This document shows, in pieces, positions 12,845-33,738 of a stretch of DNA of 64,000 bases. The stretch's first letter is position 1. Each line of letters opens with the position of its first letter. Source of the DNA: Winslowiella toletana (lineage in GTDB: Bacteria; Pseudomonadota; Gammaproteobacteria; Enterobacterales; Enterobacteriaceae); the NCBI RefSeq assembly GCF_032164335.1, contig NZ_CP134152.1, positions 1,860,001 to 1,924,000 of the forward strand. Direction: 5' to 3'. The position numbers were made by a program, and so were the translations under genes. The notes beneath the pieces were generated by a model. That model was not told the origin of the DNA, made no database searches, and was given only the letters and a program-made list of their open reading frames with translations.

Positions 12845-14503
12845 ACCCTGTCAAATTTCCATTGAGACGCATAATACAAATCAATAAATAATGTGACAAG
12901 ATGTGGATATGATATTAATGATTTTTTCCCAGGGGGAAAATTCTTAAAGATTATGTACATGGGGAGGGTAAAAAATTGATCATATTCAATCGGATATGGC
13001 ATTGAAAAGAACTACATTTGTATAATTAGATAAGATTATTTCCTGCTGATATAAGAATAATTCCTATATTTTCATTGAATTGGTTAAAAAAAAACAGCAC
13101 AAAAAGTCAAAAATGAGCTATAAAGCGAATTCAGGCGGAGATTTTGTAAATTTATGTTTCAAATTTGTTAATAGGTAAGCAGTTTAATTAACATTTACAA
13201 TGTTACAAGCCAGACGCCCGTGTTAAGGCGATACCAAGAGGTGGACCAGGGTCTTTCTGATCTGATCACTAAGCGCATCGCAGATAAGATTGATGCCGGA
13301 CGAAATAGTTCAAATTATTCTGACTGGCCTGAATCAGGATGTTGCGTTTCGATTTCCGTTCTGTCGATTGCAGCATGCAAATCTTTGGCATGACATGAGC
13401 AGATGTACTTATGTTGGAGGAGTGCATACGGCTCACGTACAGATGAAGTGCAGGTTGCAAATCCCTGACACGGTAGGATAAACGTTGAGTCGGCCGTGAA
13501 ATCTGTATTCTCTGCAAGTAATCTCTCCTTTTCTGCCTTCTGTAACCGCATTCATCGCCGGAAATGGCTACCAGGAATATATAAAGCACTGGGCAAGGTA
13601 GTGAACCGATCCTCACTGACTTTATTACCGGATGATATAAATCTAGATTACGTAGCTACTAAGAGCCAATTTTATTACTACTCTATTTGCCAGCGCCTGA
13701 TATAACGCCGATAAACAATTGAAATAAAATGCCAGCTGACTCCAATTAGAGAAATTTGAAGGAGGATGTTTTTTAGATTTACTCTTAGCATTACAAGTAT
13801 AGTCTGATGTAGGTTAGCAATTGTCTGATTGCGATAACTAAACCTATTCTTAGTCTCAGGATGTCAACGATGGCCAGTATTTCCTGTGGAACGAGGAGAA
13901 GAGATTTTTCTCATGGAAATTATTTGTCATTTGCAGTTACCAATTACTTGACATTGGAACGGAAAACATGAAAAGTAATATTGAAAACAGCACAACAAAA
14001 CAAACAAAAAGAAATCTCAACACATCTTCTGTCCACTGACTGTGCAAGGATGATACAACGACATGGAGTCGATAAATTTAAGCAAAATTCCTAATTTACC
14101 CGGCAGTAATCTTAAAAAAACTTATTTCAGTCGCAGTGTTTAGCTGGCTGTAAGAAACTTCTGTGAATATATCCATCATGGATTTCTGACGTGCTTGCTG
14201 GCTGTGTAAAACCTTATTTAAATGAAATGTCGATAGGCATAAAGCTATAGCCCGATAATGAGGGTTTATCATGGCAGGCCAGATTGAAGTCAAAAATAGT
14301 TTCTACAATTTGAAGCGCGCTTAACCGCACTTCAGCTTTGATGCCCTGACGCTTGCCGGGCATGCTGGCGTTTTAATATCAATTTGAAATTAGTGATTAT
14401 GTTGAAAAATTAGATACTTAAATATAAGTTTTTCTAATTTTTCGACTGGAAATCACTATTTTAGCGTTAAAAAGTAAACACTAACTTATAAAGTAGGTAA
14501 AAA
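12845..14503. other. Long A/T-rich intergenic region between ecpR and tpsA
   Basis: About 1.66 kb separating two divergent adhesin clusters. It must hold the ecpR and tpsA promoters. The stretch 13210-13620 is less A/T-rich and has broken open frames on both strands (for example one ending near 13402 containing YQEVDQGLSDLITKRIADKID), suggesting a decayed gene I cannot identify. Near 14341-14375 ATGCCC pairs with GGGCAT and the structure is followed by TTTTAAT, which may be an orphan terminator. A nested inverted repeat occupies 14391-14458. No intact gene is seen. Confidence 0.5.
14391..14458. repeat. Nested inverted repeat upstream of tpsA
   Basis: Outer arms TAGTGATT (14391-14398) and AATCACTA (14451-14458), and inner arms GAAAAATTAGA (14404-14414) and TCTAATTTTTC (14433-14443), are perfect and nearly share one centre. 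The whole 68-bp element ends 45 bp before the tpsA start codon. It could be a cruciform, a long leader-RNA hairpin or a double operator for an unknown regulator. Confidence 0.6.
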
Positions 14504-17047
14504 ATGAAAAGTAAGCATGGCTTAATGAAATTTAATCCGTTAGCGGTATCGATTCTGCTGGCACTGCCAGTGGTCGTCAATGCTGCCGATCTCAGCATGA
14601 CAAATGGCAGCACCACCATGGCAAACGGTGTGCCGGTAGTTAATATCAATGAAGCTAATGCCAATGGTATTTCACATAACATTTATGACAAGCTAAATGT
14701 CGGTAAAGAAGGCTTAATCTTCAACAACAGCCAGAATGGAGCTAATACTACCCTCGCTGGCCAGATTGCGGGTAACAGCAACTTAGCTTCAGGAACCGCC
14801 AAAGTTATCCTGAACGAAGTGACCTCGCGAAATAAAAGTACCCTGAGTGGCATGATGGAAGTGGCCGGTGATAAAGCGCACCTGATTATCGCCAACCCAA
14901 ACGGTATTACCTGTGAAAGCTGCGGCTTTATCAACACGGATAGAGTGACTGTCACCACCGGTAAACCGGATCTGGATAATGGTGAGCTGAAAGGATATTC
15001 AGTTAACGGTGGCATTATTACAACCAATGGCTTAACCAGCGATTCACCAACCGCGATTCTGGCGCGTTCGATTGTGGTTAATGGCGACATCAATGTTTCT
15101 GGCGAAGAGCTCTCTCTGATTGCCGGCAATAATTATGTCGATATGGATAATCAGGTAACCGGCACCGTTTCCGCCACTGGTTCCAGAAATACTTATGCGG
15201 TTGATGTTGCCAAACTGGGTGGCATGTACGCAAATAAAATCAATTTGATCAGTACTGAAAGCGGTATCGGCGTGCGTAACGTCGGCGTGCTGGCTGCCGG
15301 TACCGGTGGCATTCAGATCGATACTAAGGGCCGTCTGATTAATAACGCTGCGCAGATTAAATCTACCGGTGCTATTGGCGTGAAAACGAATGGTGCGATT
15401 GATAATATCACCGGTAAGATTGTCAGCGATCAGACCGTTTCTATTGATACCAATAAAAACGCTATCAACAATAGCCGTGCGGGTAACATTATGTCCGGCG
15501 CCAATGTCTATATCAGTAGCGGAGCATTTAACAACACCAACGGTAAGGTGGCTGCCGGCAACACTCTGGCGCTTAATACCAATAATAATACGCTGACTAA
15601 CTACGGCAAGGGAACCACCGTCGGTATGGAAGCGGCAATCGTGGCACTGGAAACCGGTACGCTGAACAACAGTAATGGTCAGATTAAGGGCTATTATGTT
15701 GGTTCTAAGTCAACCAGCGTTAACAACACCAGCGGCATTATCGAGTCTGCAGGTAACATTGATATGTCCAGCACCGGTGCAATTAATAATACCGGTGGAC
15801 TGATCCGCGCCGCAGCGGGATATCTGAAAATTGATGCTTCGAAAAGTACTCTGACAAACAATCGTACCAAAACTGCTGATGCATCAAGTGCCGACTCGCT
15901 GGGGCTTGTTGCCGGTGAAGGTGGTATCGAAATTTCCGTAGCAAATCTGAACAACAGTAATGGACAGATAGCCTCTTCTGGCGATATCGGATTACTGGCG
16001 ACCTCCAGCGTAAATAACGCCAATGGCAAAGTCGCGACTGTGAAGAATGTTTCTATCAAAGCAGCCTCGCTGAACAACAATGAGTCGAGCATTGTTGGCA
16101 AGACCGGTATCAACATCGATTTAAGCGGTGACGTTACTAACCGTATCGGTACCATCTCTTCTGAAGATGGTGATGTGAATATTCAGGCTCGTCGCATTAA
16201 CAACACCGCTGGCCTGGTGTTAGGACAAAATATTAATCTTAATGCGGTTAATAATGTCGATAACAATACCGCGCTGATCGTTGCTAAAAAGAAACTGACC
16301 GTTAATGCTGGCGCTACGGTTACCAACCAGGATAGCAAAGGTTTCGCGACCTGGTATGGTCTGTACTTCGGTATGCCTGAACAGCAGGGTGGCATGATTG
16401 GTAACGGCGGCGTAGAGATTACTGCAAAAGAGCTGAATAATAATAACAGCCGTATTATTGCCCAATCTGCACCGTTAACTCTGGCTATTACCAATGCTTT
16501 ATATAATGACCGTAGCATGCTGGTCGGTGCTGGCGAGTCAAGCATTAAGGCTGGAACCATGAGCAGCAACTACTCAACCGTCTACTCAACAGGTGACCTG
16601 TCGATTGATACCCGTACTCTGTCTTTATACAGCAGCGGCAATATGATCGATAATAATGCTACCGGTATTATTGCAGCCGATGGCGCACTGACGCTGAATG
16701 TCGGCAGCAACTTTACCAACTACGGCTGGATTACCGGTAAAGAAAAAGTGACCGTTAATTCAGAAGGAACGTTGTATAACCGTAATACTATCTACTCAGA
16801 TAAAGAAACCAATGTTTACGGAAAAACCGCGATTTACAACTACAACGATATGGTTGGTGAAAATAAGTTAACCGTTAACTCCACTGGCACGGTGTATAAC
16901 TCCGGTAATATGTTCACCGAAGGTACCGCAAGTGTTACGGGTAAAACTGTTAACAACACTGGCAGTTCAGCCGTGCTTGGCGGTCGCCAGGGACTGGAAC
17001 TGATTGCAAATACCGTTACTGGTAACGGTAAAGTAGTTGGACTGTAA
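14504..17047 (+). CDS. Two-partner-secretion exoprotein (TpsA, filamentous-haemagglutinin type, short)
   Basis: 847 residues. A signal peptide (VSILLALPVVVNA) is followed by a TPS secretion domain (about residues 30-270) with GANTTLAGQIAGN, the NPNGI motif and the CESCGF pair that FHA-like proteins carry in this domain. Residues 270-840 are a beta-helix made of degenerate repeats rich in NNSNGQI, NTSGII and NNTGGL. It ends abruptly at GLELIANTVTGNGKVVGL, with no pretoxin, no CDI toxin domain and no obvious anchor. Predicted role: surface or released adhesin threaded out by the TpsB at 17105. AGTAGG lies six bases ahead of the ATG. It heads the operon with the acyl synthase genes, an unusual partnership. 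Confidence 0.92.
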   Translation: MKSKHGLMKFNPLAVSILLALPVVVNAADLSMTNGSTTMANGVPVVNINEANANGISHNIYDKLNVGKEGLIFNNSQNGANTTLAGQIAGNSNLASGTAKVILNEVTSRNKSTLSGMMEVAGDKAHLIIANPNGITCESCGFINTDRVTVTTGKPDLDNGELKGYSVNGGIITTNGLTSDSPTAILARSIVVNGDINVSGEELSLIAGNNYVDMDNQVTGTVSATGSRNTYAVDVAKLGGMYANKINLISTESGIGVRNVGVLAAGTGGIQIDTKGRLINNAAQIKSTGAIGVKTNGAIDNITGKIVSDQTVSIDTNKNAINNSRAGNIMSGANVYISSGAFNNTNGKVAAGNTLALNTNNNTLTNYGKGTTVGMEAAIVALETGTLNNSNGQIKGYYVGSKSTSVNNTSGIIESAGNIDMSSTGAINNTGGLIRAAAGYLKIDASKSTLTNNRTKTADASSADSLGLVAGEGGIEISVANLNNSNGQIASSGDIGLLATSSVNNANGKVATVKNVSIKAASLNNNESSIVGKTGINIDLSGDVTNRIGTISSEDGDVNIQARRINNTAGLVLGQNINLNAVNNVDNNTALIVAKKKLTVNAGATVTNQDSKGFATWYGLYFGMPEQQGGMIGNGGVEITAKELNNNNSRIIAQSAPLTLAITNALYNDRSMLVGAGESSIKAGTMSSNYSTVYSTGDLSIDTRTLSLYSSGNMIDNNATGIIAADGALTLNVGSNFTNYGWITGKEKVTVNSEGTLYNRNTIYSDKETNVYGKTAIYNYNDMVGENKLTVNSTGTVYNSGNMFTEGTASVTGKTVNNTGSSAVLGGRQGLELIANTVTGNGKVVGL

Positions 17048-17053
17048 TTAAAT

Positions 17054-17092: not shown

Positions 17093-17104
17093 GGCAAAGG
17101 CGTT

Positions 17105-18763
17105 ATGAAAAGCACAATAAAACCGTTATTGATTTTTGTTGCTCTGGGTTTTAGCGAGCAATCTGTTGCTGACGTTGATTTAAACCGGCTGATTAAAGCG
17201 CAGCAGGACATTGACCGCAGCACGCGTCAGGAAAACAGGGTTGTTAAAAAGGATGTCTGGTCAAAAGTAGAGAGTTTTAAGATCAATAACATTGATTTTC
17301 CGATAGAGGAACATTGTATTGAGATCGATGAACTGATTTTAAACAATGATTTTCTGCATGACGCCAGTATTAAAAAAATTAAAGCGGATGTGGCCGGGCG
17401 TTGTCTGGGTTCGGTGGGTGTTGGCAAACTGGCGACTGAATTGCAGGATTACTTCATTAATTCTGGTTATGTCACCACGCGAATCGACGTACCCAGTCAG
17501 GATTTATCGACGAAGAAATTAATCCTCGATATTGTTCCTGGCCGAATTGAAAGCGTCATCATTGAGGGTAACGATGTTCGCGACTGGATTTTACCGTTTA
17601 AATCCGGCGAGATTCTGAACGTCAGGGATATCGAACAGGGGCTGGAAGTGCTGCAGAAAGTGCCTGGCCTTAACGTAAAAATAAATATCGAACCGGGCAG
17701 TCAGGGCGGCTACAGCAATGTGCTGATTAATACCGGTCGCACTAAAAACTGGAATGCACGCGCCTGGGTTAACAACTGGGGTGATAAAGGTACCGGTCGA
17801 AATTTAATGGGTGGTGCAGGTTATCTCTATAACCTGACCAAAATGAACGACGTATTTTACCTGTCTGGTACCACCAATGCCGAACATGAAAGCGGTCGTT
17901 ACAACAGCGTCAGTGCTTATTACTCGATACCTTATGGTTACTGGGATTACGAGCTGTTCTACAGTAACAGTAAATCCCGACAGGTCATTAATATTGACCC
18001 TTACGCCTTCAACTACAACGGTAACAGTGAGTATTTAAGCCTGAAGGCAGCCAGAACCGTTTATCGTGACATGGACAAGAAGGTCACTCTCAGTGCAGAG
18101 TTATTGCGCAGAAAGGTCAATTATAAATTAGAAGACGTTGAGTTAGCGCTACAAAAACGTGATATGAACAACGTGCGCTTTGGTGTTAATTTTAAGAAGA
18201 ATATGCCAGGTGCGCTGCTGGATACGACGCTTTCGTATCAGCGATTTTTACCCTGGCTTGGCGCTGAGTACACGCCGGACATGGACTCAGGTGACGTCAG
18301 TCGACAAAGTAACCTGTTTAACCTGGACGTGAACTACACAAAATTATTGAATTTGCCGTTGGTCGAGAGTTATTACGAACTCCGAATGGGCGGGCAGTAT
18401 TCTCCTGATGCTTTGACGTTACAGGATCAGTTTACAATAGGTAACCGCTGGAACGTGCGCGGATTTGAGAACAGCGCCGGGCTTTATGGCGATAGCGGAT
18501 TTTATGCGCAGAACACCGTTAATTTTATTACAGGGCTGAGCAATCTTGAATGGTACGTCGGTACCGATTATGGCGCTATTTTCAATGATCATAATTCGCA
18601 GGATAGCTATAATAATAAACAGTTGCTGGGCGCAACCACCGGTTTAAAAGGCAGCTTCAAGTCATTGGGTTATGATATTTCATTATCCAGGCCACTGATC
18701 TCTCCAGATGCTTTTAATACCGATAAGTTTACCGCTAATTTTAATATTTACTATCAACTGTAA
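17105..18763 (+). CDS. Two-partner-secretion outer-membrane transporter (TpsB, ShlB/FhaC type)
   Basis: 552 residues. A signal peptide (LLIFVALGFSEQSVA) leads to an N-terminal helix, two POTRA domains (about 60-210; KINNIDFPIEEHCIEIDELIL, LDIVPGRIESVIIEGN) and a 16-strand barrel to the C-terminus. Family landmarks are the NWGDKGTGR strand, TIGNRWNVRGFENSAGLYGDSG (the conserved VRGF motif in loop 6) and the terminal aromatic strand NIYYQL. It exports the TpsA encoded just upstream across the outer membrane. The PPTase gene starts 17 bp after its stop, so the secretion pair and the acyl synthase genes are very likely cotranscribed. Confidence 0.93.
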   Translation: MKSTIKPLLIFVALGFSEQSVADVDLNRLIKAQQDIDRSTRQENRVVKKDVWSKVESFKINNIDFPIEEHCIEIDELILNNDFLHDASIKKIKADVAGRCLGSVGVGKLATELQDYFINSGYVTTRIDVPSQDLSTKKLILDIVPGRIESVIIEGNDVRDWILPFKSGEILNVRDIEQGLEVLQKVPGLNVKINIEPGSQGGYSNVLINTGRTKNWNARAWVNNWGDKGTGRNLMGGAGYLYNLTKMNDVFYLSGTTNAEHESGRYNSVSAYYSIPYGYWDYELFYSNSKSRQVINIDPYAFNYNGNSEYLSLKAARTVYRDMDKKVTLSAELLRRKVNYKLEDVELALQKRDMNNVRFGVNFKKNMPGALLDTTLSYQRFLPWLGAEYTPDMDSGDVSRQSNLFNLDVNYTKLLNLPLVESYYELRMGGQYSPDALTLQDQFTIGNRWNVRGFENSAGLYGDSGFYAQNTVNFITGLSNLEWYVGTDYGAIFNDHNSQDSYNNKQLLGATTGLKGSFKSLGYDISLSRPLISPDAFNTDKFTANFNIYYQL

Positions 18764-18779
18764 ACGTCAAGGAAAGATA

Positions 18780-19148
18780 ATGTTTGTCGGTACGGATATC
18801 GTGGAAGTCGAACGTATTAAGCATGCGATTGTGCGCCTCGATATGGCATTTATGCAGCGAATATTCACCGAGGCGGAAATTGTTAAAATTGATGCTAAAA
18901 ATCCTGATTATGAAAGGGCATCGGGTTTTTGGGCAGCCAAAGAGTCAATTGTCAAAGCGACAGGCTTAGGATTTCGTAACGGGATTCGTTTTCATGACGC
19001 TGAAATTTCTCACGATGAATTTGGCGCGCCATGCTTTCTGCTGCAGGGTCGGCTAAAGGAAATTATTCATGAAAAAGGCTTATCAAAAATATCGTTAAGT
19101 ATTTCGCATTGTCGAACGCATGCTATTGCGGTCACGATTCTTTCTTAA
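18780..19148 (+). CDS. AcpS-type 4'-phosphopantetheinyl transferase (holo-ACP synthase)
   Basis: 122 residues from ATG 18780, with AAGGAAAG upstream; the longer open frame into tpsB has no such site. The magnesium and CoA residues are present: Asp6 in GTDIVEVERI and Glu55 in FWAAKESIVKATG. The end SISHCRTHAIA is also typical of AcpS. It transfers phosphopantetheine from CoA to a serine of an acyl carrier protein. A housekeeping acpS is normally elsewhere (beside pdxJ), so this copy is probably dedicated to the ACP at 20501. Confidence 0.92.
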   Translation: MFVGTDIVEVERIKHAIVRLDMAFMQRIFTEAEIVKIDAKNPDYERASGFWAAKESIVKATGLGFRNGIRFHDAEISHDEFGAPCFLLQGRLKEIIHEKGLSKISLSISHCRTHAIAVTILS

Positions 19149-19172
19149 TTATTAACTATCTGAAGTGTAGCT

Positions 19173-19928
19173 ATGTATAAATATAACGACCTTATTGACA
19201 AGAATGTCCTGGTGACCGGTGCCAGTGGTGATATTGGCCTGGGAATATGCGCCGAGTTTTTACAGCAGCAAAGCCATGTTTATGCGCTGTATAAATCAAA
19301 TTCTGCGGATCTGGAGCAGCTGAAAGAGACGCATCCTCATGGTGATCGACTGCATATTCTGCAATGCGATCTGGCTGACAAAGATTCAGTGATTCAGTTA
19401 TGTCAGCATCTGAGTCAGCAGGCTAAAAAGCTGGATGTTCTGGTTAATAATGCCGGTATCGTGCGCGACAGCTTGTTTGCCTCAATGAGTTTTGATGACT
19501 TCAATACGGTCATTGATACCAACCTGCTGAGTACTTTTGTTCTGACTAAAGAAGCGCTGTTGCTGTTAAGAGCATCTGAAAGTGCGGCAATTGTTAACGT
19601 GGCCTCTATCGCCGCCATTATCCCCAGTGTCGGCCAGTGTAATTACAGCGCATCCAAGGGCGCATTGCTGGGATTCACTCGTACGCTGGCGGCTGAACTG
19701 GCCCCTCGAGGGGTGCGGGTTAATGCGGTAGCGCCGGGAATGATCGAATCAAAGATGGTGAAGAAGGTGCCGCGTACCGTGGTGCGCGATGTGATCGCTT
19801 CCGTGCCATTACGACGCCTGGGAAAATGTGAGGAAGTCGCTAATACCATCGTTTATTTAAGCTCTTCAGCTTCCAGCTATATTGTTGGCCAGACCATCGT
19901 TATCGATGGTGGCCTGGTGATGCGGTGA
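19173..19928 (+). CDS. FabG-like 3-oxoacyl-ACP reductase (SDR)
   Basis: 251 residues, classical short-chain dehydrogenase length. The cofactor motif TGASGDIGLG lies at about 15-24, NNAGIVRDS at 92-100, and the catalytic Ser145, Tyr158 and Lys162 (in NYSASKGALLGFTR) are intact. The C-terminus VGQTIVIDGGLV is typical of FabG. It would reduce a 3-oxoacyl-ACP to the 3-hydroxy compound using NADPH. It lies 24 bp after the PPTase gene and 3 bp before the dehydratase, inside the acyl synthase operon. Confidence 0.92.
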   Translation: MYKYNDLIDKNVLVTGASGDIGLGICAEFLQQQSHVYALYKSNSADLEQLKETHPHGDRLHILQCDLADKDSVIQLCQHLSQQAKKLDVLVNNAGIVRDSLFASMSFDDFNTVIDTNLLSTFVLTKEALLLLRASESAAIVNVASIAAIIPSVGQCNYSASKGALLGFTRTLAAELAPRGVRVNAVAPGMIESKMVKKVPRTVVRDVIASVPLRRLGKCEEVANTIVYLSSSASSYIVGQTIVIDGGLVMR

Positions 19929-19931
19929 TTT

Positions 19932-25891: not shown

Positions 25892-25909
25892 ACTGATTTA
25901 GGAAGTGTG

Positions 25910-26890
25910 ATGTATTTATCTTCATTCTCGATGACGGAACCACAGGAAAGCATTTATTTATACCATCCCTGCTGGTTAAACGTCTGGGAGTCTCATCTGT
26001 ATAAGAAGGCACTTAAGTCGACAGCGGCGCACGCGTGGGGCTTTAAACGTTTTGGCACCCATAAAGATGCCTATGCCAGAGAGATGATCAGAACTCCTCG
26101 CTATAAAGAGTATATCGATGCGATGGAACAAGTTTCTGACGCCGCTTTGCAGCAATTAACTGCTAAACAGCGTATGCAGCTGCTAAAGTCGCGCACCGCA
26201 TTTATTTATGTTGATAGTTGGGGAGAATCCGGCCCGCTGGAAGATATCTCCAGTGCACTGCATACGGCAATCATCGATACACTACCGAAAAATTTAGTAA
26301 AGAAATTTTCGGTAAAAGATTTTACCTGCAAAATCAGAGGGGAAAAACAGTCTCTGGTGCAGGCGATGAGAGTAGCAGAGGACTACCTGAATTGGGGTGT
26401 TTTTGACTTTGTGGTGATATTAGCCGCTTATCGGGCGATACCGGTACTGGTTTTCTCTGAAGAAGATATTCCGATTAATAAGAAAGAAAAAATCAGAGAC
26501 AAGGAATTCAAAATGAACTTGTCTGTTGAGCGAACGGGCTGTTTTATTTTTAGTCATCACGAAAGTGATCTTAAGATTAACTGCGGGCATTACTCGGCTG
26601 CTGACTCTGATAATAGCTTGAGCATGGAAATGATGGGAAGGGATTCTGATATTAATCTGATCACCTTCTCCGGTTTAAGAAAAAGCGCCACCGAGCGTGA
26701 GTTGCTGAGCAATACGGCTGGATCGGAAATTAAAACGATTAATCTCACTGAACTCTATGGCGGCAGCGGATGCCTTTCGCCTGCGCTGAGCTGGATCTAT
26801 CTTGACCAGCAAACAGATTGTCACGGCAAAATGCGCACGGTGATACCCGATAATTTTGGCGGCTTTAGCTGGTTCGATACCCGCTATTAA
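25910..26890 (+). CDS. Uncharacterised protein, possible degenerate ketosynthase-like subunit
   Basis: 326 residues from ATG 25910 (AGGAAG four bases upstream; a GTG one codon earlier is too close). I do not recognise a named family. AMRVAEDYLNWGVFDFVVILAAYRAIPVLVFSEEDI resembles the KS segment in which a helix leads to a core strand, and the C-terminal ATERELLSNTAGSEIKTINLTELYGGSGCLSPALSWIYL resembles the KS stretch around the second His and the glycine-rich turn. No catalytic Cys or His is placed as in an active KS. It has no signal peptide. Probably a non-catalytic partner of the KS proteins encoded just upstream; this is a weak structural inference. Confidence 0.55.
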   Translation: MYLSSFSMTEPQESIYLYHPCWLNVWESHLYKKALKSTAAHAWGFKRFGTHKDAYAREMIRTPRYKEYIDAMEQVSDAALQQLTAKQRMQLLKSRTAFIYVDSWGESGPLEDISSALHTAIIDTLPKNLVKKFSVKDFTCKIRGEKQSLVQAMRVAEDYLNWGVFDFVVILAAYRAIPVLVFSEEDIPINKKEKIRDKEFKMNLSVERTGCFIFSHHESDLKINCGHYSAADSDNSLSMEMMGRDSDINLITFSGLRKSATERELLSNTAGSEIKTINLTELYGGSGCLSPALSWIYLDQQTDCHGKMRTVIPDNFGGFSWFDTRY

Positions 26891-26909: not shown

Positions 26910-27620
26910 ATGATGGCAAGCAGCATAAAAGCACTGCCGGCAATACTATTGATTGATATTTTCAAAAGTTATGGCGTCGGAGATAACAAAGTTGATGCGC
27001 TCAGGAATATTAACCTTGAGATTAACAAAGGGGAGTTTCTCGCATTATGCGGCCCATCAGGAAGTGGAAAGAGCACTTTGCTCAATATATTGTCAGGTAT
27101 AGATAAACCAACGGCTGGATCGACACTGTTTCTGGACAAAGCGCTTAACGATTTAAATGAAAATCAGCTGTCAATAATCAGAAGTAAACACCTGGGCTTT
27201 ATCTTCCAGTTTTTCAACCTGATTCCGGTACTGAGTGCCTTTGATAACGTTTATTACCCGTTGATTTTGAACGGAAATTACACCAAAAAAACAGCAAAAG
27301 AGCAGGCGCTGCATTACCTCGACAGCGTTGGCATTAGCACGCTGCGCGATCGTAAACCAGGCCAGCTATCGGGCGGTCAGCAACAGCGCGTAGCCATTGC
27401 CCGAGCGCTGGCAAATAATCCGCAAGTGGTGGTAGCCGATGAGCCAACCGGTAATCTTGATCTCGCAACCGGTGAAGCGATTCTCGACCTGCTAATGAAG
27501 ATTAATCAGGACACCGGCACCACATTTATTATTTCAACACACTCAACCCAGCTTAAAGACCGGGCCAGACGTGTTATCGAAATTGAAGATGGAGAGTTAG
27601 TCCGTGACTCCGCTAAATAA
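26910..27620 (+). CDS. ABC transporter ATPase, LolD/MacB type
   Basis: 236 residues. Walker A GPSGSGKST (48-56), Q-loop FIFQFFNLIPVLSAFDNV, signature LSGGQQQR, Walker B VVVADEPTGNLD and the switch His in IISTHS are all intact. FQFFNLIP and DEPTGNLD are typical of the LolD/MacB/FtsE subfamily, whose partners are FtsX-like permeases working on envelope substrates without moving them through the inner membrane. The matching permease is at 28258. CAGGG lies upstream of two tandem ATGs. Overlaps the next gene by 17 bp. Confidence 0.93.
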   Translation: MMASSIKALPAILLIDIFKSYGVGDNKVDALRNINLEINKGEFLALCGPSGSGKSTLLNILSGIDKPTAGSTLFLDKALNDLNENQLSIIRSKHLGFIFQFFNLIPVLSAFDNVYYPLILNGNYTKKTAKEQALHYLDSVGISTLRDRKPGQLSGGQQQRVAIARALANNPQVVVADEPTGNLDLATGEAILDLLMKINQDTGTTFIISTHSTQLKDRARRVIEIEDGELVRDSAK

Positions 27621-28257
27621 ACTTATGCTGTTTTTTTTGCTTGGCTTATTCATTGCTGCACAGAAGATAGCTGTGGCTGCACCGCTACCGGCAGTGGAGA
27701 AAGTAATACAACAAGGTTTTCCCAGCCAGGCTGACGCGTTGTTAAACACCAGCAATCAGCTGTTTGATGAATATCACAGCGAAAAAAATATCACCTCACT
27801 GATATTTTACTCCTACGCTATGCTGCGACTGGCAAATCACTTTGAAGCGGTTAACGACTACGTCAACGCTTCAGAGTACGCCAAATTGGGATTTTTTTAC
27901 CTCGATGAAGCGGTGGATTCCCATGAAGAGAATCTGCGCGTTCGTTATTTACGTGCGCGTATCGATGCTTATTTACCGGCAGGTTTGGGGCGCTGCGTGG
28001 TTACGTTGAATGATACCGATATATTGTTAAAACAGAGCGATAAGTTTGATGCTGATATCCTTGCGCAGATTAACTATATGCGTTATCGCGCGTTGTCCAG
28101 TTGCAAGGAAAATGCACGCGCTGATGCATTGCTGAAACAGATGAAAAACGGCAGCGCGACGCAATTAAGATTATTGGCGCTGGAGGCTGACAGCACGCCT
28201 GCATGGGATTTGAATGAAGTCTCACAGATTCTGATGCCTTTGGTAAAAGGTGAGTAA
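27604..28257 (+). CDS. Secreted helical-repeat protein of the ABC export module
   Basis: 217 residues from GTG 27604, inside the 3' end of the ATPase gene, with GGAG nine bases upstream. An N-terminal hydrophobic signal (LMLFFLLGLFIAAQKIAVAAP) precedes an all-helical body with paired-helix repeats (YAMLRLANHFEAVNDYVNASEYAKLGFFYLDEAV) resembling TPR units. Two cysteines (GRCVV, LSSCKEN) may form a disulfide. No known family is recognised. It lies between the ATPase and the permease, overlapping one and abutting the other, so it is probably a periplasmic accessory subunit of that transporter. Confidence 0.65.
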   Translation: MTPLNKLMLFFLLGLFIAAQKIAVAAPLPAVEKVIQQGFPSQADALLNTSNQLFDEYHSEKNITSLIFYSYAMLRLANHFEAVNDYVNASEYAKLGFFYLDEAVDSHEENLRVRYLRARIDAYLPAGLGRCVVTLNDTDILLKQSDKFDADILAQINYMRYRALSSCKENARADALLKQMKNGSATQLRLLALEADSTPAWDLNEVSQILMPLVKGE

Positions 28258-29571
28258 ATGAATATTGGAATGATATTAACCAGCATTGCTGTTTTAATGA
28301 TTTTATGCTTTTTAATGTATAGCGTATTATTCACCGCGCAGGATACCAAATTTGCCTTTCTGAATTTGTTCCGACATAAAAGACGCTCATTTTCGACCAT
28401 TTTTGCCATCATCCTTGGTGGCGTAGCGATATTCCTCTACGGCGGCTTTATCGACTACTCCTTCTGGATTCTGAAGCAGCAAACGGTACGCACCAATATC
28501 GGTCATATTCAGATCTATGATAAGTCATACTTTGAGACCTCGAACAAAAGTAAAAGCATCATTAATAATTATCAGGGGTTGAAAGCCGATATTATTCATG
28601 ATCCGGAGTTATCGAAGTATATTTCGACCATCTCTGGCCAGCTTGAGTTCACCGGGGTAATTTCACAATATGAGCACGAAACCTCCAGCTATTTTTCCGC
28701 ACTGGGAGTGGAGCCGTTACCGGCATTAAAACTCGGTTCTTTCGACAAACTGGTTTCCGGTAGCGATCTGTCACGTATTAAACATGACGAAATAACTCTG
28801 GGAAGTGGTCTGGCAAATACCCTCAGCGCACGCTATGCCGACTGGGTGGATCTGCTGGTGGTCAACAGTCACGGCGGACAGGGGGCATTATCGCTTAAGG
28901 TTCGCGGTATTTTTTCTTCAGGAATCAAAGATTACGATGATGTCGCAATGAAAATGCCGCTGCAAACCGCGCAGCGAGTGATGGCCACTGACGGCGTCAG
29001 CAAATTTGTTATTTTGCTGAAAGACGATCGGCAACTGGATGAATTTAGCATCAAGCTGGAAAAATTTATCGCTGATAAGCAGCTGCCGTTGATAGTGAAA
29101 AACTGGAAAGAGTTATCGATATTTTATCAGCAGGTAGAAGGTCTGCTGTCAGGTATCTACTTCTTTATCAAAGTGATCGTCGCGCTGATCGTGATCTTTA
29201 TGATCGGTAATTCGATGAGCATGAACATTCTCGAAAGAACCCGTGAAATCACCACATTGAGGGCTATTGGTCTGCGACCTGCCCATGTCTCGCGACTGTT
29301 TCTGTTAGAGGGAATCTTTATTGGCGCGATTGGCGCGATCGGCAGTCTGATTATCGGTTTTGCTCTGGCCGGGATAATTAACCTGAAAGGCATTGCGATG
29401 CCGCCGTCACCGGGCCAGTCCCAGGGTTACAACGCCTTTATCAAAACCGATAACTTCGATTTGTACTGGATTACCCTGGTGCTGCCAATCCTGACGGCGT
29501 CACTGGCATCAATACTGCCGGCGCTTAAGGCATCCAGACTCAATATTTCAGATGCATTTAAATCAGTCTAG
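28258..29571 (+). CDS. FtsX/MacB-like ABC transporter permease
   Basis: 437 residues. Hydrophobic segments lie at about 4-22, 45-62, 298-320, 345-375 and 395-425. A large periplasmic MacB_PCD-type domain (65-295) sits between the second and third, and the FtsX domain is at the C-terminus (RTREITTLRAIGLRPAHVSRLFLLEG is the FtsX coupling segment that touches the ATPase). The extra N-terminal helix is not usual. It starts directly at the stop of the upstream gene. With the LolD-like ATPase and the LolA-like protein that follows, it should extract or push a hydrophobic or lipidated substrate from the inner membrane. Confidence 0.9.
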   Translation: MNIGMILTSIAVLMILCFLMYSVLFTAQDTKFAFLNLFRHKRRSFSTIFAIILGGVAIFLYGGFIDYSFWILKQQTVRTNIGHIQIYDKSYFETSNKSKSIINNYQGLKADIIHDPELSKYISTISGQLEFTGVISQYEHETSSYFSALGVEPLPALKLGSFDKLVSGSDLSRIKHDEITLGSGLANTLSARYADWVDLLVVNSHGGQGALSLKVRGIFSSGIKDYDDVAMKMPLQTAQRVMATDGVSKFVILLKDDRQLDEFSIKLEKFIADKQLPLIVKNWKELSIFYQQVEGLLSGIYFFIKVIVALIVIFMIGNSMSMNILERTREITTLRAIGLRPAHVSRLFLLEGIFIGAIGAIGSLIIGFALAGIINLKGIAMPPSPGQSQGYNAFIKTDNFDLYWITLVLPILTASLASILPALKASRLNISDAFKSV

Positions 29572-29581
29572 GAACAACCAA

Positions 29582-30364
29582 ATGAAAGTTTGCGCATCTT
29601 TATCGTTATTCTCTTCTCTGCTGCTTTCGACGCTGGCATGGGCTGATTCTGCACAAACTACCGCGCTGGAAATTATTCGCCAGTCTGACGATGTACGTTC
29701 ACCGAATCAACCCTTCCGCTACACCGTTACGGTGCTGGAGTATAAACCGGGCGCGGCCGATCCGACCAACAAGCAGGTTCTGGATGTTTCCATGCGCTTT
29801 CTTAAACCTGAGGCGAATAGCGAGGCCGATGCACGCTCGCTGGTACGCTTTATTTTCCCGCCAAGGGACAGGGGGAAAGTGATGTTATCCGACTGGTATG
29901 ATTTGTGGTTTTACACGCCGGAATTGCGACGCCCAATTCCCATCTCCCGCCAGCAAAGACTGTTAGGTCAGATTTCCAATGGGGACGTCATTGTCACTAA
30001 CTTTGAATATGCCTATAACGCTAAGCGGCTGGACGACCAACCTTGCGGTGACAATATCTGCTACCAGCTGGCGCTGGAGCGCAAGTCGCCGGATGTAACC
30101 TATCCAAAAGTAAACTATCTCGTTGAACAGGGTAGCTATCGTCCGTTTAAAGCCTCCTATTTTTCACTGGATGACAAACTTATGAAAGAGGTGCTGTATC
30201 AGGATTATCAGCCGCTGCTTGGTAAGCACAGGCCAGCGAAAATCGTGGTAACCGATGCGCGCCACGGCAGTGGTTATACCGTAATGGAATACAGCAATTT
30301 AAGATTTGAATCGCTGCCGCTGTCGCATTTTACTAAGGAGTATATTCAGCGGGGGGGCAATTAA
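29582..30364 (+). CDS. LolA-like outer-membrane lipoprotein-sorting family protein
   Basis: 260 residues from ATG 29582 (AGGAAC upstream); an in-frame ATG at 29552 lies in the permease gene and would spoil the signal peptide MKVCASLSLFSSLLLSTLAWA. The mature part has the unclosed beta-barrel pattern of the LolA-like sorting family (RYTVTVLEYKP, DWYDLWFYTPELRRPIPISRQQRLLGQISNGDV, YPKVNYLVEQGSYRPFKASYFSLDDKLMKEVLY). Such proteins often accompany RND or ABC systems carrying lipids or lipoproteins through the periplasm. The stop overlaps the next start (TAATG), showing tight coupling with the barrel protein. Confidence 0.86.
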   Translation: MKVCASLSLFSSLLLSTLAWADSAQTTALEIIRQSDDVRSPNQPFRYTVTVLEYKPGAADPTNKQVLDVSMRFLKPEANSEADARSLVRFIFPPRDRGKVMLSDWYDLWFYTPELRRPIPISRQQRLLGQISNGDVIVTNFEYAYNAKRLDDQPCGDNICYQLALERKSPDVTYPKVNYLVEQGSYRPFKASYFSLDDKLMKEVLYQDYQPLLGKHRPAKIVVTDARHGSGYTVMEYSNLRFESLPLSHFTKEYIQRGGN

Positions 30365-31731
30365 TGTCTGTTATTCGCTGGCTGATGCTGCCGATGCTGT
30401 TGCTGCCAGCGGAAAGGGTGGCGGCCTGCCTGTCTGACGCCGATCTGGAACTGTTTGGCCAGATCGCTTACGTGCGGAAAATGCCTTCAGCCTGGCAAAT
30501 AGACGGGGATAATCCATACCGCGCCAATAATGGTTATAACGACCTGGCGGTTAAATACAGTAATCGCTGTCAGCTGATTGAAGATCGGCTGAGTTTCAGT
30601 GTTGCTCTGTATGGGCTGGCTTATTATCCGTTCCAGACAACCGGCGCATTTGAAAAAGATGATAACCGGATGAGAGTGCTGTTTGATCGGTTAAGTCTCT
30701 CTTACAACCTTTCCGATACTGTCAGGCTGGATGCTGGCAAAATCAGAAATAAGGGAGGGCTGTTTTACCTTAAATCCCCGGCTGGTCTGTTGAATAACGA
30801 CTATGCAGGATTTAAACCGACGCGGATAAACCATCCCGCTATGAAGCAGGCCTATACCGAGTCCTTCTGGGGCGCAGTGCTGTCAGAGGATAGTGCGGTT
30901 CGCTCCCTGTCATTAACGGTAGCGCCAAAATTTACGCACATTGATAAGCGCTATGAGTCCTCCAGTAACTGGTCTGCGCTCGAACGTTCGAACAGCAGCG
31001 ATCGTTATTTACTGACTTACACCGATTATCGCTTTGACAATTTTACGCCGTCAGCCAGCCTCATGCTGGGTGATTCAAAATCCCTGGCGCTGGCTAACAG
31101 TTATAACCTGTCTCCGCAGTTGATCTTCAATGCCGAATTAGCCTGGCATATGCAACAGCAGTGGCGTCATCTGGATAGGGATAGTGCTGAGAGAGTGCAG
31201 AATTACGCTTTTCCAGAGGAGCTGTACCGCACCAATGATAAACAGGGAATTGAGCTGGCGCTGGGAATGCAGTACACCACCGACCGCTTCAGCCAGTTTG
31301 GCGTAGAGTATTATTTTCAGAGCGAAGGCTATTCTGCTGCGCAATGGCGCAAACAGACCGATTTAATAAAATTTCTCAATCAGAGAACCCATTACGCGCC
31401 GCTGGATAACGCCTTCGATGCGTATAAATATTTAATGGCATCTGAAATCTACAACACATCCAGTAAAGGTAACTTGCTGGGCAGGCATTACCTTAACAGT
31501 TACGCCAGTATCCTGATGCAGGATCAGTCCAGCCTGAAACCCTGGGTTGTGATTAATATGCTTGATAAGAGTTCGATTGTGGGGATTACCTATACCAAAC
31601 CGCTGGATAAATGGAGCAAGCAGCTGGAAATCTACACCGGCGTGTATGCCGCTTTTGGCAACAAGGATTCCGAATTCGGCCTGTTTGGCGAAACGCTCGG
31701 AAATTATTTAGGTTTTAATTATCATTTCTAA
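30364..31731 (+). CDS. Predicted outer-membrane beta-barrel protein of the export module
   Basis: 455 residues. A signal peptide (LMLPMLLLPAERVAACLS) precedes a run of amphipathic strands with many Tyr/Trp/Phe, such as RLSFSVALYGLAYYPF, VRLDAGKI and QFGVEYYFQSEGYS. The protein ends LGNYLGFNYHF; a terminal Phe is the outer-membrane assembly signal. I do not recognise the exact family; it resembles the DUF1302-like and alginate-export barrels that sit next to lipid transporters. TAATG coupling with the LolA-like gene suggests it receives that protein's cargo at the outer membrane. Confidence 0.7.
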   Translation: MSVIRWLMLPMLLLPAERVAACLSDADLELFGQIAYVRKMPSAWQIDGDNPYRANNGYNDLAVKYSNRCQLIEDRLSFSVALYGLAYYPFQTTGAFEKDDNRMRVLFDRLSLSYNLSDTVRLDAGKIRNKGGLFYLKSPAGLLNNDYAGFKPTRINHPAMKQAYTESFWGAVLSEDSAVRSLSLTVAPKFTHIDKRYESSSNWSALERSNSSDRYLLTYTDYRFDNFTPSASLMLGDSKSLALANSYNLSPQLIFNAELAWHMQQQWRHLDRDSAERVQNYAFPEELYRTNDKQGIELALGMQYTTDRFSQFGVEYYFQSEGYSAAQWRKQTDLIKFLNQRTHYAPLDNAFDAYKYLMASEIYNTSSKGNLLGRHYLNSYASILMQDQSSLKPWVVINMLDKSSIVGITYTKPLDKWSKQLEIYTGVYAAFGNKDSEFGLFGETLGNYLGFNYHF

Positions 31732-31741
31732 GGTTTTTGTT

Positions 31742-32662
31742 ATGGAAATTAAGCAATCACAGCCGGTCGCCTTTATGTTTGCCGGTCAGGGCAATCCCGT
31801 CATCGGTATGGGTTCAGATTTATGGGATATTAATGATGTTACCCGGCAGATCTGGGATTGTGCCAGCGATATTTCTCAGACGGATATTCGCCGTCTTTGT
31901 CTGAAAGGGCCAATGAATAAACTGGTGCAAACCACCTGTCAACAGGTGGCGGTTACGGCGATTAATGCCACGCTGTTTACATTGTGTCGTGAGAAAATTG
32001 AGACGTCGAAGGTGGTGGGATTATGTGGCCACAGTGTAGGTGAATACGCTGCATTATATGCGGCCAATTCCGTCACGCTCGAAGACCTGTTTAAAATGAT
32101 CCACTTTCGCTCAACGTTGATGAATGATCTGAGTAAAGTGAATAAAGGTGCAATGTACGCCGTAAAAGGTATTGATTATCAAACGATAATCGACCTGATT
32201 GCCCGATCTGACGCAGAAGTGGATGTCAGTTGTGATAATAGTCATCGGCAGCAGGTTATCGGCGGAACCAGTGCATCATTGACGGAATTTTCCCGCACTC
32301 TGACGGCTGGCAGCTATGAGACGGCAAAACTTGGTGTCAGCGGCGCCTGGCATACCCGACTGATGGCAGCGGGAGTGCAGCAGATGCGAGACTTTTTAGC
32401 CACGGTAGAGATTAAACGCCCACAGTACGACGTGCTGATGAATGTTACCGGCAGGCCAGAAGCCGATCCGGCGATGATTAAAGAGAATTTATCGCTGCAC
32501 TTAACCCATACCGTTAAATGGACTGAGTCGATGGAGCATTTATTAAACAATCCTATGGCACCATTGCTGATTGAGGTGAGTAATAAAGCTTATCTCGGGC
32601 ATATGCTGAATGATTTTGACGGCTTCGCGCCGGAAATGACGCTGCATTGCAGAAAGTTTTAA
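31742..32662 (+). CDS. FabD-like malonyl-CoA:ACP acyltransferase
   Basis: 306 residues. It begins with the oxyanion motif FMFAGQGNPVIGMG. The nucleophile is Ser98 in GHSVGEYAA, the conserved arginine is in HFRSTLM (Arg123), and His204 lies in SGAWHTRLM. This is the full catalytic set of malonyl transferases, which load the extender unit on ACP. A separate housekeeping fabD is expected elsewhere, so this copy serves the cluster. In many discrete-AT systems the usual GAFHS or HAFHS motif follows the active site; here it is GAWHT, which may signal a different extender preference. Confidence 0.92.
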   Translation: MEIKQSQPVAFMFAGQGNPVIGMGSDLWDINDVTRQIWDCASDISQTDIRRLCLKGPMNKLVQTTCQQVAVTAINATLFTLCREKIETSKVVGLCGHSVGEYAALYAANSVTLEDLFKMIHFRSTLMNDLSKVNKGAMYAVKGIDYQTIIDLIARSDAEVDVSCDNSHRQQVIGGTSASLTEFSRTLTAGSYETAKLGVSGAWHTRLMAAGVQQMRDFLATVEIKRPQYDVLMNVTGRPEADPAMIKENLSLHLTHTVKWTESMEHLLNNPMAPLLIEVSNKAYLGHMLNDFDGFAPEMTLHCRKF

Positions 32663-32679
32663 ATATTTACTGGTGCGCT

Positions 32680-33675
32680 ATGATTCCCGATTATCTTAAA
32701 TTTATCCGTTTTCAGGATAAAAGGCTGGTTCTTTTTTTCTATTCTGTGCTGTTTGTTGTTCTGGGTTTTTACTGGAAGAATAATGACTACAAGGTGACAC
32801 AGCACGATGTGTGGTTCATTAGTGGGCTACTGTCTATTATGCTGTTTAATTTTATTTATGAACTAAAAGCCTGGTGGGCATACAGTTATGTTATAGGTCG
32901 TGTCGATGTCGATGCTTTTACAGGGAAACACTGTAGTCCTGCGCTGATTTTTTTCTCACGGCCAACGATTATCAGTGCGCTGTCAATATTCGTCTTTTGG
33001 CTCATCGTTAAATGTTGCCTGATGCTACCCTCGATGATCTACAGCGTCATCTGTCTGTATGTCTTGTCACCGCTATATATCTTGTTGATATTTCGTTGGC
33101 TCAGGACCGTTTATATCAGGCAGTTGCTGACAACGGTTTCAACTGGAGTACGCTATAGAAATCTTTATCAATATCTGGGATGCTATATTTTACCGGTTGC
33201 CTTGATTAACCTGATATCTGTCAGTCCGTTGGCTGCTAATTCGGACTTTTCCTTAACTGAGGGATTCTTTTCAGCCAGGCTAATGATTGCCATGCTGATT
33301 TTATGTGCGGTGGTATTGGCGATTAACCTGATATTTTCTTTGTTATCAAAACGGTATGTTTTTCTCGGCCGAGTGTTCTTAAAGGAGATTGACTTTTTCT
33401 TCTCGAAATCAATCCCTTTCCATTCGCTGTATGCAAAGCCGTTTATCATCAGAGTTCTGCTATTGCTGCTGGTTGTGGCAGTGTGGATTATCTGTATCAG
33501 CAGCGCACTTAGCCTGTTACAGTGGCAGATCGGATTTCAAACCTACTTCATACTCTGTTTTATGCCTTGCCTGGCTTATTACTTCTTGCATACATACTGG
33601 CACTGGCATAACGAATTTATGATGTCGTGTGATATGTACTTCCGTTATGAAGAGTTTAATAAGCGTAATAACTGA
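32680..33675 (+). CDS. Polytopic inner-membrane protein, unknown function
   Basis: 331 residues from ATG 32680. An upstream TTG at 32647 overlaps the transferase gene and neither start has a good ribosome-binding site, so translation is probably coupled to that gene. About eight hydrophobic segments are visible (LVLFFYSVLFVVLGFYW, WFISGLLSIMLFNFIYEL, PTIISALSIFVFWLIV, LSPLYILLIF, YILPVALINLISV, LMIAMLILCAVVLAINLIF, VLLLLLVVAVWIICI, TYFILCFMPCLAYYFL). Late HWHNE and KPF residues are polar. No family is recognised. It is the last gene before the terminator, so it may transfer, attach or flip the product of the synthase. Confidence 0.65.
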   Translation: MIPDYLKFIRFQDKRLVLFFYSVLFVVLGFYWKNNDYKVTQHDVWFISGLLSIMLFNFIYELKAWWAYSYVIGRVDVDAFTGKHCSPALIFFSRPTIISALSIFVFWLIVKCCLMLPSMIYSVICLYVLSPLYILLIFRWLRTVYIRQLLTTVSTGVRYRNLYQYLGCYILPVALINLISVSPLAANSDFSLTEGFFSARLMIAMLILCAVVLAINLIFSLLSKRYVFLGRVFLKEIDFFFSKSIPFHSLYAKPFIIRVLLLLLVVAVWIICISSALSLLQWQIGFQTYFILCFMPCLAYYFLHTYWHWHNEFMMSCDMYFRYEEFNKRNN

Positions 33676-33711
33676 CGGCTAACGGATTTATGACGCAGTC
33701 GTAGCTGAAAA

Positions 33712-33738
33712 CACCCCGTAGATGCGGGGCGTTTTTTT
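33712..33738 (+). terminator. Intrinsic terminator of the TPS/acyl-synthase operon
   Basis: The stem CCCCG (33714-33718) with CGGGG (33725-33729), loop TAGATG, is followed by CG and seven T. It lies about 35 bp past the last gene and is the only strong intrinsic terminator I see between 18.7 and 33.7 kb. Confidence 0.85.

What the first reader, a model, noticed from the sequence alone, without database searches (positions are those of the whole stretch)
14391..33738. Two-partner-secretion adhesin operon carrying a complete dedicated acyl synthase and a Lol/Mac-like export line
Seen: tpsA, tpsB, an AcpS-type PPTase, KR, DH, ACP, GcvT-like protein, KS-CLF fusion, two atypical KS-fold proteins, LolD-like ATPase, helical-repeat protein, FtsX-like permease, LolA-like protein, outer-membrane barrel, malonyl transferase and polytopic membrane protein, all on the plus strand with small gaps or overlaps and one strong terminator at the end. 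Known: type II fatty-acid/polyketide clusters such as aryl polyenes have PPTase, ACP, KS, CLF, KR, DH and LolA-like genes, but they are not fused to a TPS pair. Inference: the cluster makes a specialised acyl or polyketide that is moved to the outer membrane and modifies, anchors or accompanies the TpsA protein. I do not recognise this combination as a described system.
Basis: partly seen in the sequence, partly recalled or inferred. Interest (0 to 1): 0.88.

Follow-up and report, generated by a model that had tools for sequence, protein, structure and literature searches.

The report
Adhesin and surface-lipid synthesis operon
A conserved bacterial operon joins a secreted surface adhesin to a complete enzyme line that probably builds an unusual polyene-type lipid and ships it to the outer membrane; the same gene set sits, its chemistry unstudied as far as we saw, in a known genomic island of E. 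coli O157.

Summary
17 plus-strand genes (tpsA, tpsB, PPTase, KR, DH, ACP, GcvT-like, KS-CLF, KS-like, thiolase-fold protein, LolD-like, unknown, FtsX-like, LolA-like, putative OM protein, malonyltransferase, YcdU) form one likely operon. The same order occurs in E. coli O157:H7 (O-island 47; 366 of 5426 E. coli genomes hold at least 80% of tpsA-to-GcvT, 369 of KS-to-malonyltransferase), Enterobacter and Rahnella. So the combination is not new; print calls it "adhesin and fatty-acid biosynthesis" or aryl-polyene type.

New here: (1) the enzyme set resembles granadaene (cyl)-type lists more than aryl-polyene clusters; (2) across 54 loci, upstream tpsA has, most simply, one origin, in the lineage lacking an enoyl-reductase-like gene carried by 25 of 25 other loci; (3) Proteus, Providencia and Morganella keep tpsA beside the acyl genes with no tpsB, LolA-like or OM gene there; (4) fimbriae, or a different TpsA, adjoin the acyl operon in other lineages; (5) K-12 ycdU is an orphan of this operon.

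Best reading: a surface polyene-lipid factory working with an adhesin. Covalent TpsA lipidation is weakly supported: the E. coli TpsA has no cysteine. The product is unknown.

The parts
14504..17047 (+). tpsA, 847 aa: signal-like N-terminus, TPS domain (NPNGI), beta-helix repeats, family-specific motif G-x-[YF]-x-G...Q-x-GG at about residues 619-630
17105..18763 (+). tpsB, 552 aa: POTRA + ShlB outer-membrane transporter
18708..19148 (+). AcpS-type phosphopantetheinyl transferase; start probably about 18780 (homologues mostly 121-135 aa)
19173..19928 (+). FabG-type ketoreductase, S/Y/K conserved in 56 of 56; CylG is among its PDB matches, not the best
19932..20495 (+). FabZ-type dehydratase, His/Glu conserved in 56 of 56
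20501..20785 (+). acyl carrier protein, attachment Ser conserved in 56 of 56
20817..21977 (+). GcvT-like protein; the 10 operon members in the tree form one clade apart from housekeeping GcvT
22111..24669 (+). KS-CLF fusion, 852 aa
24674..25891 (+). diverged KS-fold protein: second active-site His replaced by Tyr in 57 of 57
25907..26890 (+). thiolase-fold protein without family match; conserved K-x-R-G-E, SVER, Y-G-x-S
26910..27620 (+). LolD-like ABC ATPase
27604..28257 (+). 217-aa protein with signal-like N-terminus, no family
28258..29571 (+). FtsX/LolE-type permease with MacB_PCD domain
29552..30364 (+). LolA-like periplasmic carrier (PF17131)
30364..31731 (+). putative outer-membrane protein, signal-like N-terminus and C-terminal Phe; no family or PDB sequence match
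31742..32662 (+). malonyl-CoA:ACP transacylase, Ser/His conserved in 53 of 53
32647..33675 (+). YcdU homologue, polytopic membrane protein; start probably about 32680; predicted all-helical, no PDB fold match
33714..33729 (+). GC hairpin followed by a T run: likely operon terminator

Best explanation
The operon is a surface-lipid factory joined to an adhesin. Inferred sequence: the PPTase activates a dedicated ACP; the malonyltransferase loads it; the KS-CLF fusion elongates, KR reduces and DH dehydrates. With no enoyl reductase of its own the line should leave double bonds in the chain (polyene type, as in granadaene and aryl polyenes). The GcvT-like protein and the two non-canonical KS-fold proteins tailor or hand over the chain. 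YcdU and the LolD/FtsX transporter move the finished lipid out of the inner membrane; the LolA-like carrier and the putative OM protein place it in the outer membrane. TpsB secretes TpsA, and adhesin and lipid act together at the surface (coat, aggregation or attachment). Shown: gene content, intact active sites, no enoyl reductase gene in the operon, conserved gene order and spacing, T and P as sister clades that both carry upstream tpsA, repeated adjacency to adhesin genes. Inferred: product class, OM destination, cooperation without covalent bond, one transcript.
For: Active sites of KS, KR, DH, AT and ACP conserved in all rows with letters. A second SDR gene is present in 25 of 25 loci outside clades T and P and in 0 of the 27 T and P loci where the place is held; the three copies tested match NCBIfam FabL (enoyl reductase) best, below its curated cut-off, and one tested matches PDB FabL best. 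KR, ACP, DH, GcvT-like, one-piece KS-CLF and AT homologues lie together in a Priestia plasmid cluster, and the set covers most of the cyl functions listed in PMC6985545 (passages). LolD-, FtsX- and LolA-like families. tpsB adjacent in 23 of 23 and tpsA in 21 of 23 clade-T loci that reach upstream; tpsA adjacent in 4 of 4 such clade-P loci. T and P are sisters with 100/99 support. Fimbriae end at acpS, or at a LuxR-type gene before it, in 3 loci; a different TpsA follows ycdU in 4 Erwinia-group genomes.
Against: No product is known. The host FabI could reduce the chain. No head-group transferase of known family and no thioesterase was recognised. The Priestia cluster used as a bridge is not itself a proven cyl operon (no CylE, glycosyltransferase or ABC pair annotated in it). 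No adhesin of the kinds searched was seen next to the acyl operon in 18 of 24 genomes outside clades T and P (TPS genome-wide, fimbriae upstream only). Clade P has no LolA-like or OM gene at the locus and a diverged ABC pair, so the OM route is not universal. The only expression evidence seen is second-hand: PMC9205054 says, citing another paper, that this region and another are induced on contact with spinach roots.
Confidence: 0.5

Rival explanations
1. Dedicated modification: the acyl product is attached to TpsA or anchors it. The acyl line exists to lipidate the adhesin before or during TpsB-mediated export.
For: tpsA stays with the acyl genes even where tpsB is absent from the locus (clade P); operon TpsA carries a motif not seen in other TPS proteins (30 of 30 rows against 0 of 30 control loci); upstream tpsA occurs in the same lineage that lacks the enoyl-reductase-like gene.
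Against: No conserved Cys outside the TPS CxxC and none at all in the E. coli TpsA; no lipobox noticed in the N-termini printed there; the acyl/export set exists without tpsA in most loci outside T and P; two Kosakonia loci keep tpsB and the acyl genes but show no tpsA.
Confidence: 0.17
2. Exported polyene with an effect on other cells or on oxidants (granadaene-like pigment or cytolysin, or photoprotectant), for which TpsA is only a co-expressed adhesin.
For: Enzyme set close to the cyl list; KR matches CylG in the PDB, though not best; granadaene is a haemolytic pigment (PMC6985545 abstract; PMC7083881 passages).
Against: No glycosyltransferase in the operon and no CylE recognised; LolA-like and putative OM genes point to retention in the outer membrane; no pigment or haemolysis report for this locus was seen in the passages read.
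Confidence: 0.18
3. Coincidence in an adhesin hot spot: fimbriae, TPS genes and the acyl cluster were collected side by side without joint function.
For: The window carries an ECP-like fimbrial operon to the left and a chaperone-usher operon to the right; E. coli O157 has fimbriae next to it too.
Against: Tight tpsB-acpS spacing and conserved order over many genera; upstream tpsA shared by sister clades T and P; tpsA kept where tpsB is absent.
Confidence: 0.1

Closest known systems
E. coli O157:H7 O-island 47 / S-loop 71 (ECs_1282-ECs_1298)
   Same: Same 17 genes in the same order; so this is the same system
   Different: TpsA is longer there (1270 against 847 aa); the flanking fimbriae differ. 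Literature names it but gives no mechanism in the passages read
cyl (granadaene) polyene operons of Gram-positive bacteria
   Same: PPTase, AT, KR, DH, ACP, GcvT-like (CylF), KS and ABC-exporter functions (list from PMC6985545); a Priestia cluster with homologous KR, ACP, DH, GcvT-like, AT and one-piece KS-CLF serves as a bridge but is not itself shown to be cyl
   Different: No glycosyltransferase and no recognised CylE; Lol-type export genes; TPS pair; extra KS-fold proteins. No cyl gene was compared directly
Aryl polyene clusters (APE)
   Same: KS/CLF, KR, DH, ACP, LolA-like protein; antiSMASH finds an APE gene in the Sakai locus (PMC9205054)
   Different: No acyl-ACP synthetase, thioesterase or RND transporter, all listed for the E. 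coli APE cluster in PMC8253772; ABC/FtsX export and a GcvT-like gene instead
Lol lipoprotein-sorting system
   Same: LolD-type ATPase, LolCE/FtsX-type permease, LolA-like carrier
   Different: Both transporter proteins score far below the curated LolD and LolCE cut-offs
Two-partner secretion systems
   Same: TPS domain with NPNGI; ShlB/POTRA transporter
   Different: Operon-linked to an acyl line; short TpsA with its own motif

Membership tests
Two-partner secretion | TpsA with TPS domain and NPNG-type motif, next to a POTRA/ShlB TpsB | tested here: met
E. coli O-island 47 acyl/adhesin operon | Same gene set and order | tested here: met
cyl (granadaene) operons | KS, KR, DH, ACP, AT and PPTase functions together | tested here: met
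   families; function list from PMC6985545. A Priestia cluster with homologues of all but the PPTase, plus the GcvT-like gene, is not a proven cyl operon
cyl (granadaene) operons | CylF aminomethyltransferase orthologue | tested here: inconclusive
   GcvT-like protein present; CylF itself not compared; the Priestia protein matches operon GcvTs best by BLAST but falls outside their clade on a long branch
cyl (granadaene) operons | CylE N-acyltransferase (universal in cyl operons by PMC6985545) | tested here: inconclusive
   No gene of that annotation among the 17, but the unnamed proteins were not compared with CylE itself
cyl (granadaene) operons | Sugar-conjugating glycosyltransferase | tested here: not met
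   No glycosyltransferase family match among the 17 proteins
Aryl polyene cluster | Acyl-ACP synthetase for the aryl starter, thioesterase and RND transporter | tested here: not met
   None among the 17 proteins; APE gene list from PMC8253772
Aryl polyene cluster | KS plus chain length factor, KR, DH, ACP, LolA-like | tested here: met
Lol system | LolD and LolCE above curated cut-offs | tested here: not met
   LolD 233.4 against 307.75 bits; LolCE 95.9 against 362.45 bits
Type II fatty-acid synthase | Enoyl reductase in the gene set | tested here: not met
   None in the window operon; a FabL-like gene was found only in loci outside clades T and P
Polyene-lipid pathway | Conjugated polyene product | not testable with these tools
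   Needs lipid chemistry

The most novel reading that the evidence does not exclude
TpsA is a proteinaceous carrier or surface scaffold for a polyene lipid: an extracellular beta-helix adhesin whose conserved G-x-[YF]-x-G...Q-x-GG face binds the acyl product without a covalent bond, so that an insoluble polyene is displayed on, or delivered by, a two-partner-secretion protein. That would explain why tpsA is kept with the acyl genes where tpsB, the LolA-like gene and the OM gene are absent (Proteus, Providencia, Morganella), and why upstream tpsA and the missing enoyl reductase mark the same lineage. It would be the first lipid-loaded TPS protein known to me (recalled, not searched).
Probability: 0.17. 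Interest if true: 0.85.

Novelty: new variant of a known kind. Interest (0 to 1): 0.6.

Why it matters
If the reading is right, a cyl-like polyene-lipid pathway, surveyed in print in Gram-positive bacteria and one chloroflexi genus (PMC6985545, passages), has a counterpart in Gram-negative bacteria, including an O-island of E. coli O157 whose acyl genes have no mechanism in the passages read. It would also show an adhesin and a surface lipid made from one operon, with adhesin genes of different kinds placed beside the same acyl line in separate lineages. It explains the K-12 gene ycdU as a leftover of this operon, and it makes testable which chemistry the O-island 47 acyl genes perform.

Tried and rejected
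A GcvT tree with wrongly picked housekeeping ORFs was discarded and rebuilt (one search failed on an assertion in my script); the Priestia sequence remains a long branch, so orthology with CylF is left open. A regex for Y-x-x-[ST]-K in the second reductase matched 1 of 26 rows, not at the active site; looking at the sequences showed a Y-x5-K pattern, and the family search then gave FabL. My first reading that loci outside clades T and P hold no tpsA was wrong for Erwinia, because the 10-kb flanks stop near ycdU; longer stretches and genome-wide searches showed a short TpsA downstream. Profile comparison of the 327-aa protein with the KS gave nothing; only the fold search did. YcdU gave no fold match with E at or below 0.001; the putative OM protein gave no PDB sequence match. 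tpsA remnants in the two Kosakonia loci: no significant match. The Phaeobacter GcvT-like hit lies in no acyl cluster of this kind. Literature searches for this locus or its mechanism: searches returned no paper; some searches gave island names, regulators, aryl-polyene papers or unrelated papers. Two cyl papers were not held. Crozier et al. (PMC4940412), cited in PMC9205054 for the S-loop regions, showed no passage about this locus with my terms.
Full report
WHAT IS THERE. Seventeen plus-strand ORFs run from 14504 to 33675, with families as listed in parts. The window is G000:C1:1860001-1924000 of a 5.01-Mb genome. Two starts should move: AcpS to about 18780 (relatives are mostly 121-135 aa) and YcdU to about 32680 (invariant M12 and P14). 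The scan for promoters and terminators is no richer than shuffled sequence, but a GC hairpin with a T run follows ycdU at 33714-33729. A weaker hairpin sits in the tpsA-tpsB gap (17064-17081). Between tpsB and the PPTase gene there are about 16 nt, too few for a terminator and promoter.

IT IS A KNOWN LOCUS. blastn of 22111-26090 finds 370 of 5426 E. coli genomes, all in the 60-80% identity band, about 71% in the rows listed. The annotated regions show the same order from tpsA to ycdU in E. coli O157:H7 FRIK2455 and Sakai (ECs_1282-ECs_1298), on an Enterobacter bugandensis plasmid and on a Rahnella plasmid (KS-CLF broken there). tblastn confirms the match gene by gene. With E. coli's own sequence, 366 of 5426 genomes hold at least 80% of tpsA-to-GcvT (371 any match) and 369 of 5426 hold at least 80% of KS-to-AT. 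[quoted passage not shown] OI-47 as a 31.7-kb island with the regulator GrvA (PMC8565820); a c-di-GMP phosphodiesterase gene, vmpA, in OI-47 (PMC4076661); deletion of OI-47 raised type III secretion in a screen (PMC3378721); the Sakai region as S-loop 71 with an aryl-polyene gene found by antiSMASH (PMC9205054), which also says, citing others, that the region is induced on contact with spinach roots. I recall, from no call, that the 2001 EDL933 genome paper already listed an adhesin and polyketide or fatty-acid system in this island. No mechanism was found in the passages read or in ten library searches.

K-12 KEEPS THE TAIL. In one search, 2609 of 5426 genomes had some match; of the 40 rows listed at even steps, 33 are a short AT tail plus ycdU and one is a 44-base ycdU match. 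In an MG1655 derivative the AT gene is cut to its 3' end behind an IS3 copy, and ycdU follows intact between dgcT and a tRNA-Ser. So ycdU is the last gene of this operon, left behind after a deletion (inference from position and homology).

WHO HAS IT. In 394 Enterobacterales genomes, 5 have a KS-CLF at E up to 1e-150: rare and patchy. The three with the window's type (75% or more) are also the only ones with a TpsB above 50% identity (4 places), all within about 18 kb of the KS-CLF (one search scored at most three candidates per genome); the next best TpsB is 38%. One of them (G305) has, after ycdU, three more TpsA-like genes and a second tpsB. A scan of one genome per species gave 54 loci, annotated. 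Clade T: 24 loci (KS-CLF 73-87% identical; Enterobacteriaceae, Pantoea, Rahnella, Mixta, one Serratia sp. and one Acinetobacter contig). Clade P: 5 loci (Proteus, Providencia, Morganella). Others: 25 loci (Erwinia, other Serratia, Cedecea, Edaphovirga, Winslowiella, Entomohabitans, Paraburkholderia, Pseudomonas, Desulfatitalea, MAGs). A KS-CLF tree of 55 rows (rows under 780 aa or cut, and a duplicate, left out; window and fetched records L021, L022, L025 added) puts T and P together at 100/99; all labels together need 7 changes where 6 is the least possible.

THE tpsA LINK. In clade T, 23 of 24 loci reach upstream of acpS (L044 is cut). tpsB is there in 23 of 23 and tpsA in 21 of 23; L048 and L053 (Kosakonia) keep tpsB but show no tpsA. 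tpsB in L050 and tpsA in L052 look broken. With the window and records L021, L022 and L024, the called tpsB-acpS gap lies between -56 and +23 nt in 26 of 27; the exception is the broken L050, and the two most negative values come from long called acpS starts. In clade P, 4 of 4 loci with upstream sequence (L054 is cut) have tpsA 64-78 nt before acpS, but no tpsB, LolA-like or OM gene was found at the locus, and their ABC proteins are much more diverged than their enzymes. Their TpsA has NP[SA]GI instead of NPNGI, as do three clade-T members (NPSGI). Each of the four clade-P genomes has 1 to 4 TpsB genes outside the locus, and 6 of the 8 fetched TpsB loci show a clear TpsA beside them. So in clade P the TpsA gene is held by its acyl neighbours, not by a TpsB neighbour: the strongest hint of a functional tie between adhesin and acyl line. 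One origin of upstream tpsA is the simplest reading of the KS-CLF tree; no TpsA tree was built. Against the tie stand the two Kosakonia loci and the many loci without tpsA.

OTHER ADHESIN LINKS. In Winslowiella iniecta a pilin-chaperone-usher-tip operon ends 5 bp before acpS. Edaphovirga cremea and bacterium B14 have a related fimbrial set (ushers 46-59% identical), then a LuxR-type gene, then acpS. Three named Erwinia genomes and one unnamed genus-mate carry a TPS protein of about 732-754 aa on the same strand after ycdU; in the three read (ErVv1, E. oleae, the unnamed one), no TpsB was found beside it and the motif below is missing. Genome-wide TPS searches in 24 of the 25 genomes outside T and P found TPS genes near the operon only in those three named Erwinia; with the three fimbrial loci, 6 of 24 have such an adhesin adjacent and 18 do not. 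Fimbriae downstream and other adhesin kinds were not searched. In the window itself an ECP-like fimbrial operon lies to the left and a chaperone-usher operon to the right.

COMPARISON. A Priestia megaterium plasmid cluster has PPTase, AT, KR, ACP, DH, GcvT-like and a one-piece KS-CLF in a row; tblastn matches KR, DH, ACP, GcvT, AT and the whole KS-CLF (27.6% over residues 7-850, 7e-92), not the PPTase. In both, the GcvT-like gene directly precedes the KS-CLF. That cluster shows no annotated CylE, glycosyltransferase or ABC pair, so it is a bridge, not a proven cyl operon. PMC6985545 (abstract and passages) lists for cyl: PPTase or ACP synthase, ACP, malonyltransferase, CylH/I, CylG, CylZ, CylF aminomethyltransferase, CylE acyltransferase, glycosyltransferase and ABC export, in Gram-positive bacteria and one chloroflexi genus. 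The window's operon has most of these functions and lacks the sugar step; CylE was not recognised, and no cyl gene was compared directly. The window KR also matches CylG in the PDB, though not best. The 10 operon GcvTs tested form one clade apart from housekeeping GcvT (99/98); the Priestia protein's best BLAST partners are operon GcvTs, but in the tree it falls outside their clade on a long branch. Aryl-polyene clusters share KS/CLF, KR, DH, ACP and LolA-like genes, but the E. coli type has an acyl-ACP synthetase, thioesterase and RND transporter (PMC8253772, passages) that are missing here. So it works like a polyene-lipid pathway, closest in gene list to cyl, and is filed as a new Gram-negative variant, not as a member of either.

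TpsA. Operon TpsAs share a motif (window: GLYFGMPEQQGG) in 30 of 30 rows (two Proteus rows are near-identical), against 0 of 30 loci around other TPS domains (33,533 aa of long open frames scanned, but only about 1.5 kb beyond each TPS domain, so longer proteins were cut). The motif was read off the same 30 rows, so only the control side is a test. It is also in the G305 operon TpsA and not in its three paralogues or in the one other TpsA read. The E. coli TpsA has no Cys at all, and several others have none outside the N-terminal signal region. Thioester or lipoprotein-type attachment is thus unlikely as a family rule; attachment at other residues is not excluded.

VERDICT. Confirmed observation, known location, little-known function. 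Best reading at 0.5: a polyene-type surface lipid made and delivered to the outer membrane together with a secreted adhesin. The most novel reading, TpsA as carrier or scaffold for the lipid, is not excluded.

Noticed in passing
window 8262-12844 (minus strand): ECP/Mat-like fimbrial operon (usher, EcpB-like, MatB-like pilin, EcpR-like regulator) divergent from tpsA.
   Followed up: partly
window 35330-43786: Second, chaperone-usher fimbrial operon with a winged-helix regulator and a LuxR-type gene directly after the acyl operon; of the ushers compared, its usher is nearest to the one beside the E. coli O157 locus (39%).
   Followed up: partly
L128 5988-7327 (E. coli MG1655 derivative): K-12 keeps only the 3' end of the malonyltransferase gene and an intact ycdU, behind an IS3 copy.
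   Followed up: yes
L086 4076-12276 (G305): After ycdU, three short TpsA-like genes and a second tpsB on the same strand: expanded adhesin set beside the acyl operon.
   Followed up: partly
L131, L132, L133 (Erwinia group): A TPS protein of about 740 aa after ycdU with no TpsB found beside it.
   Followed up: partly
L045 (Acinetobacter sp. ANC 4558 contig): KS-CLF 87% identical to the window's, the highest of the 54 loci, outside Enterobacterales: recent transfer or misassigned contig.
   Followed up: no
L074, L081 (MAGs): Deep relatives with two KS-CLF genes in the cluster (L074).
   Followed up: no
L067, L068, L077, L078 (Pseudomonas): LolA-like, OM and AT genes lie upstream of acpS instead of downstream: rearranged operon.
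   Followed up: no
window 17064-17081: Terminator-like hairpin in the tpsA-tpsB gap; may lower tpsB and acyl expression relative to tpsA.
   Followed up: no
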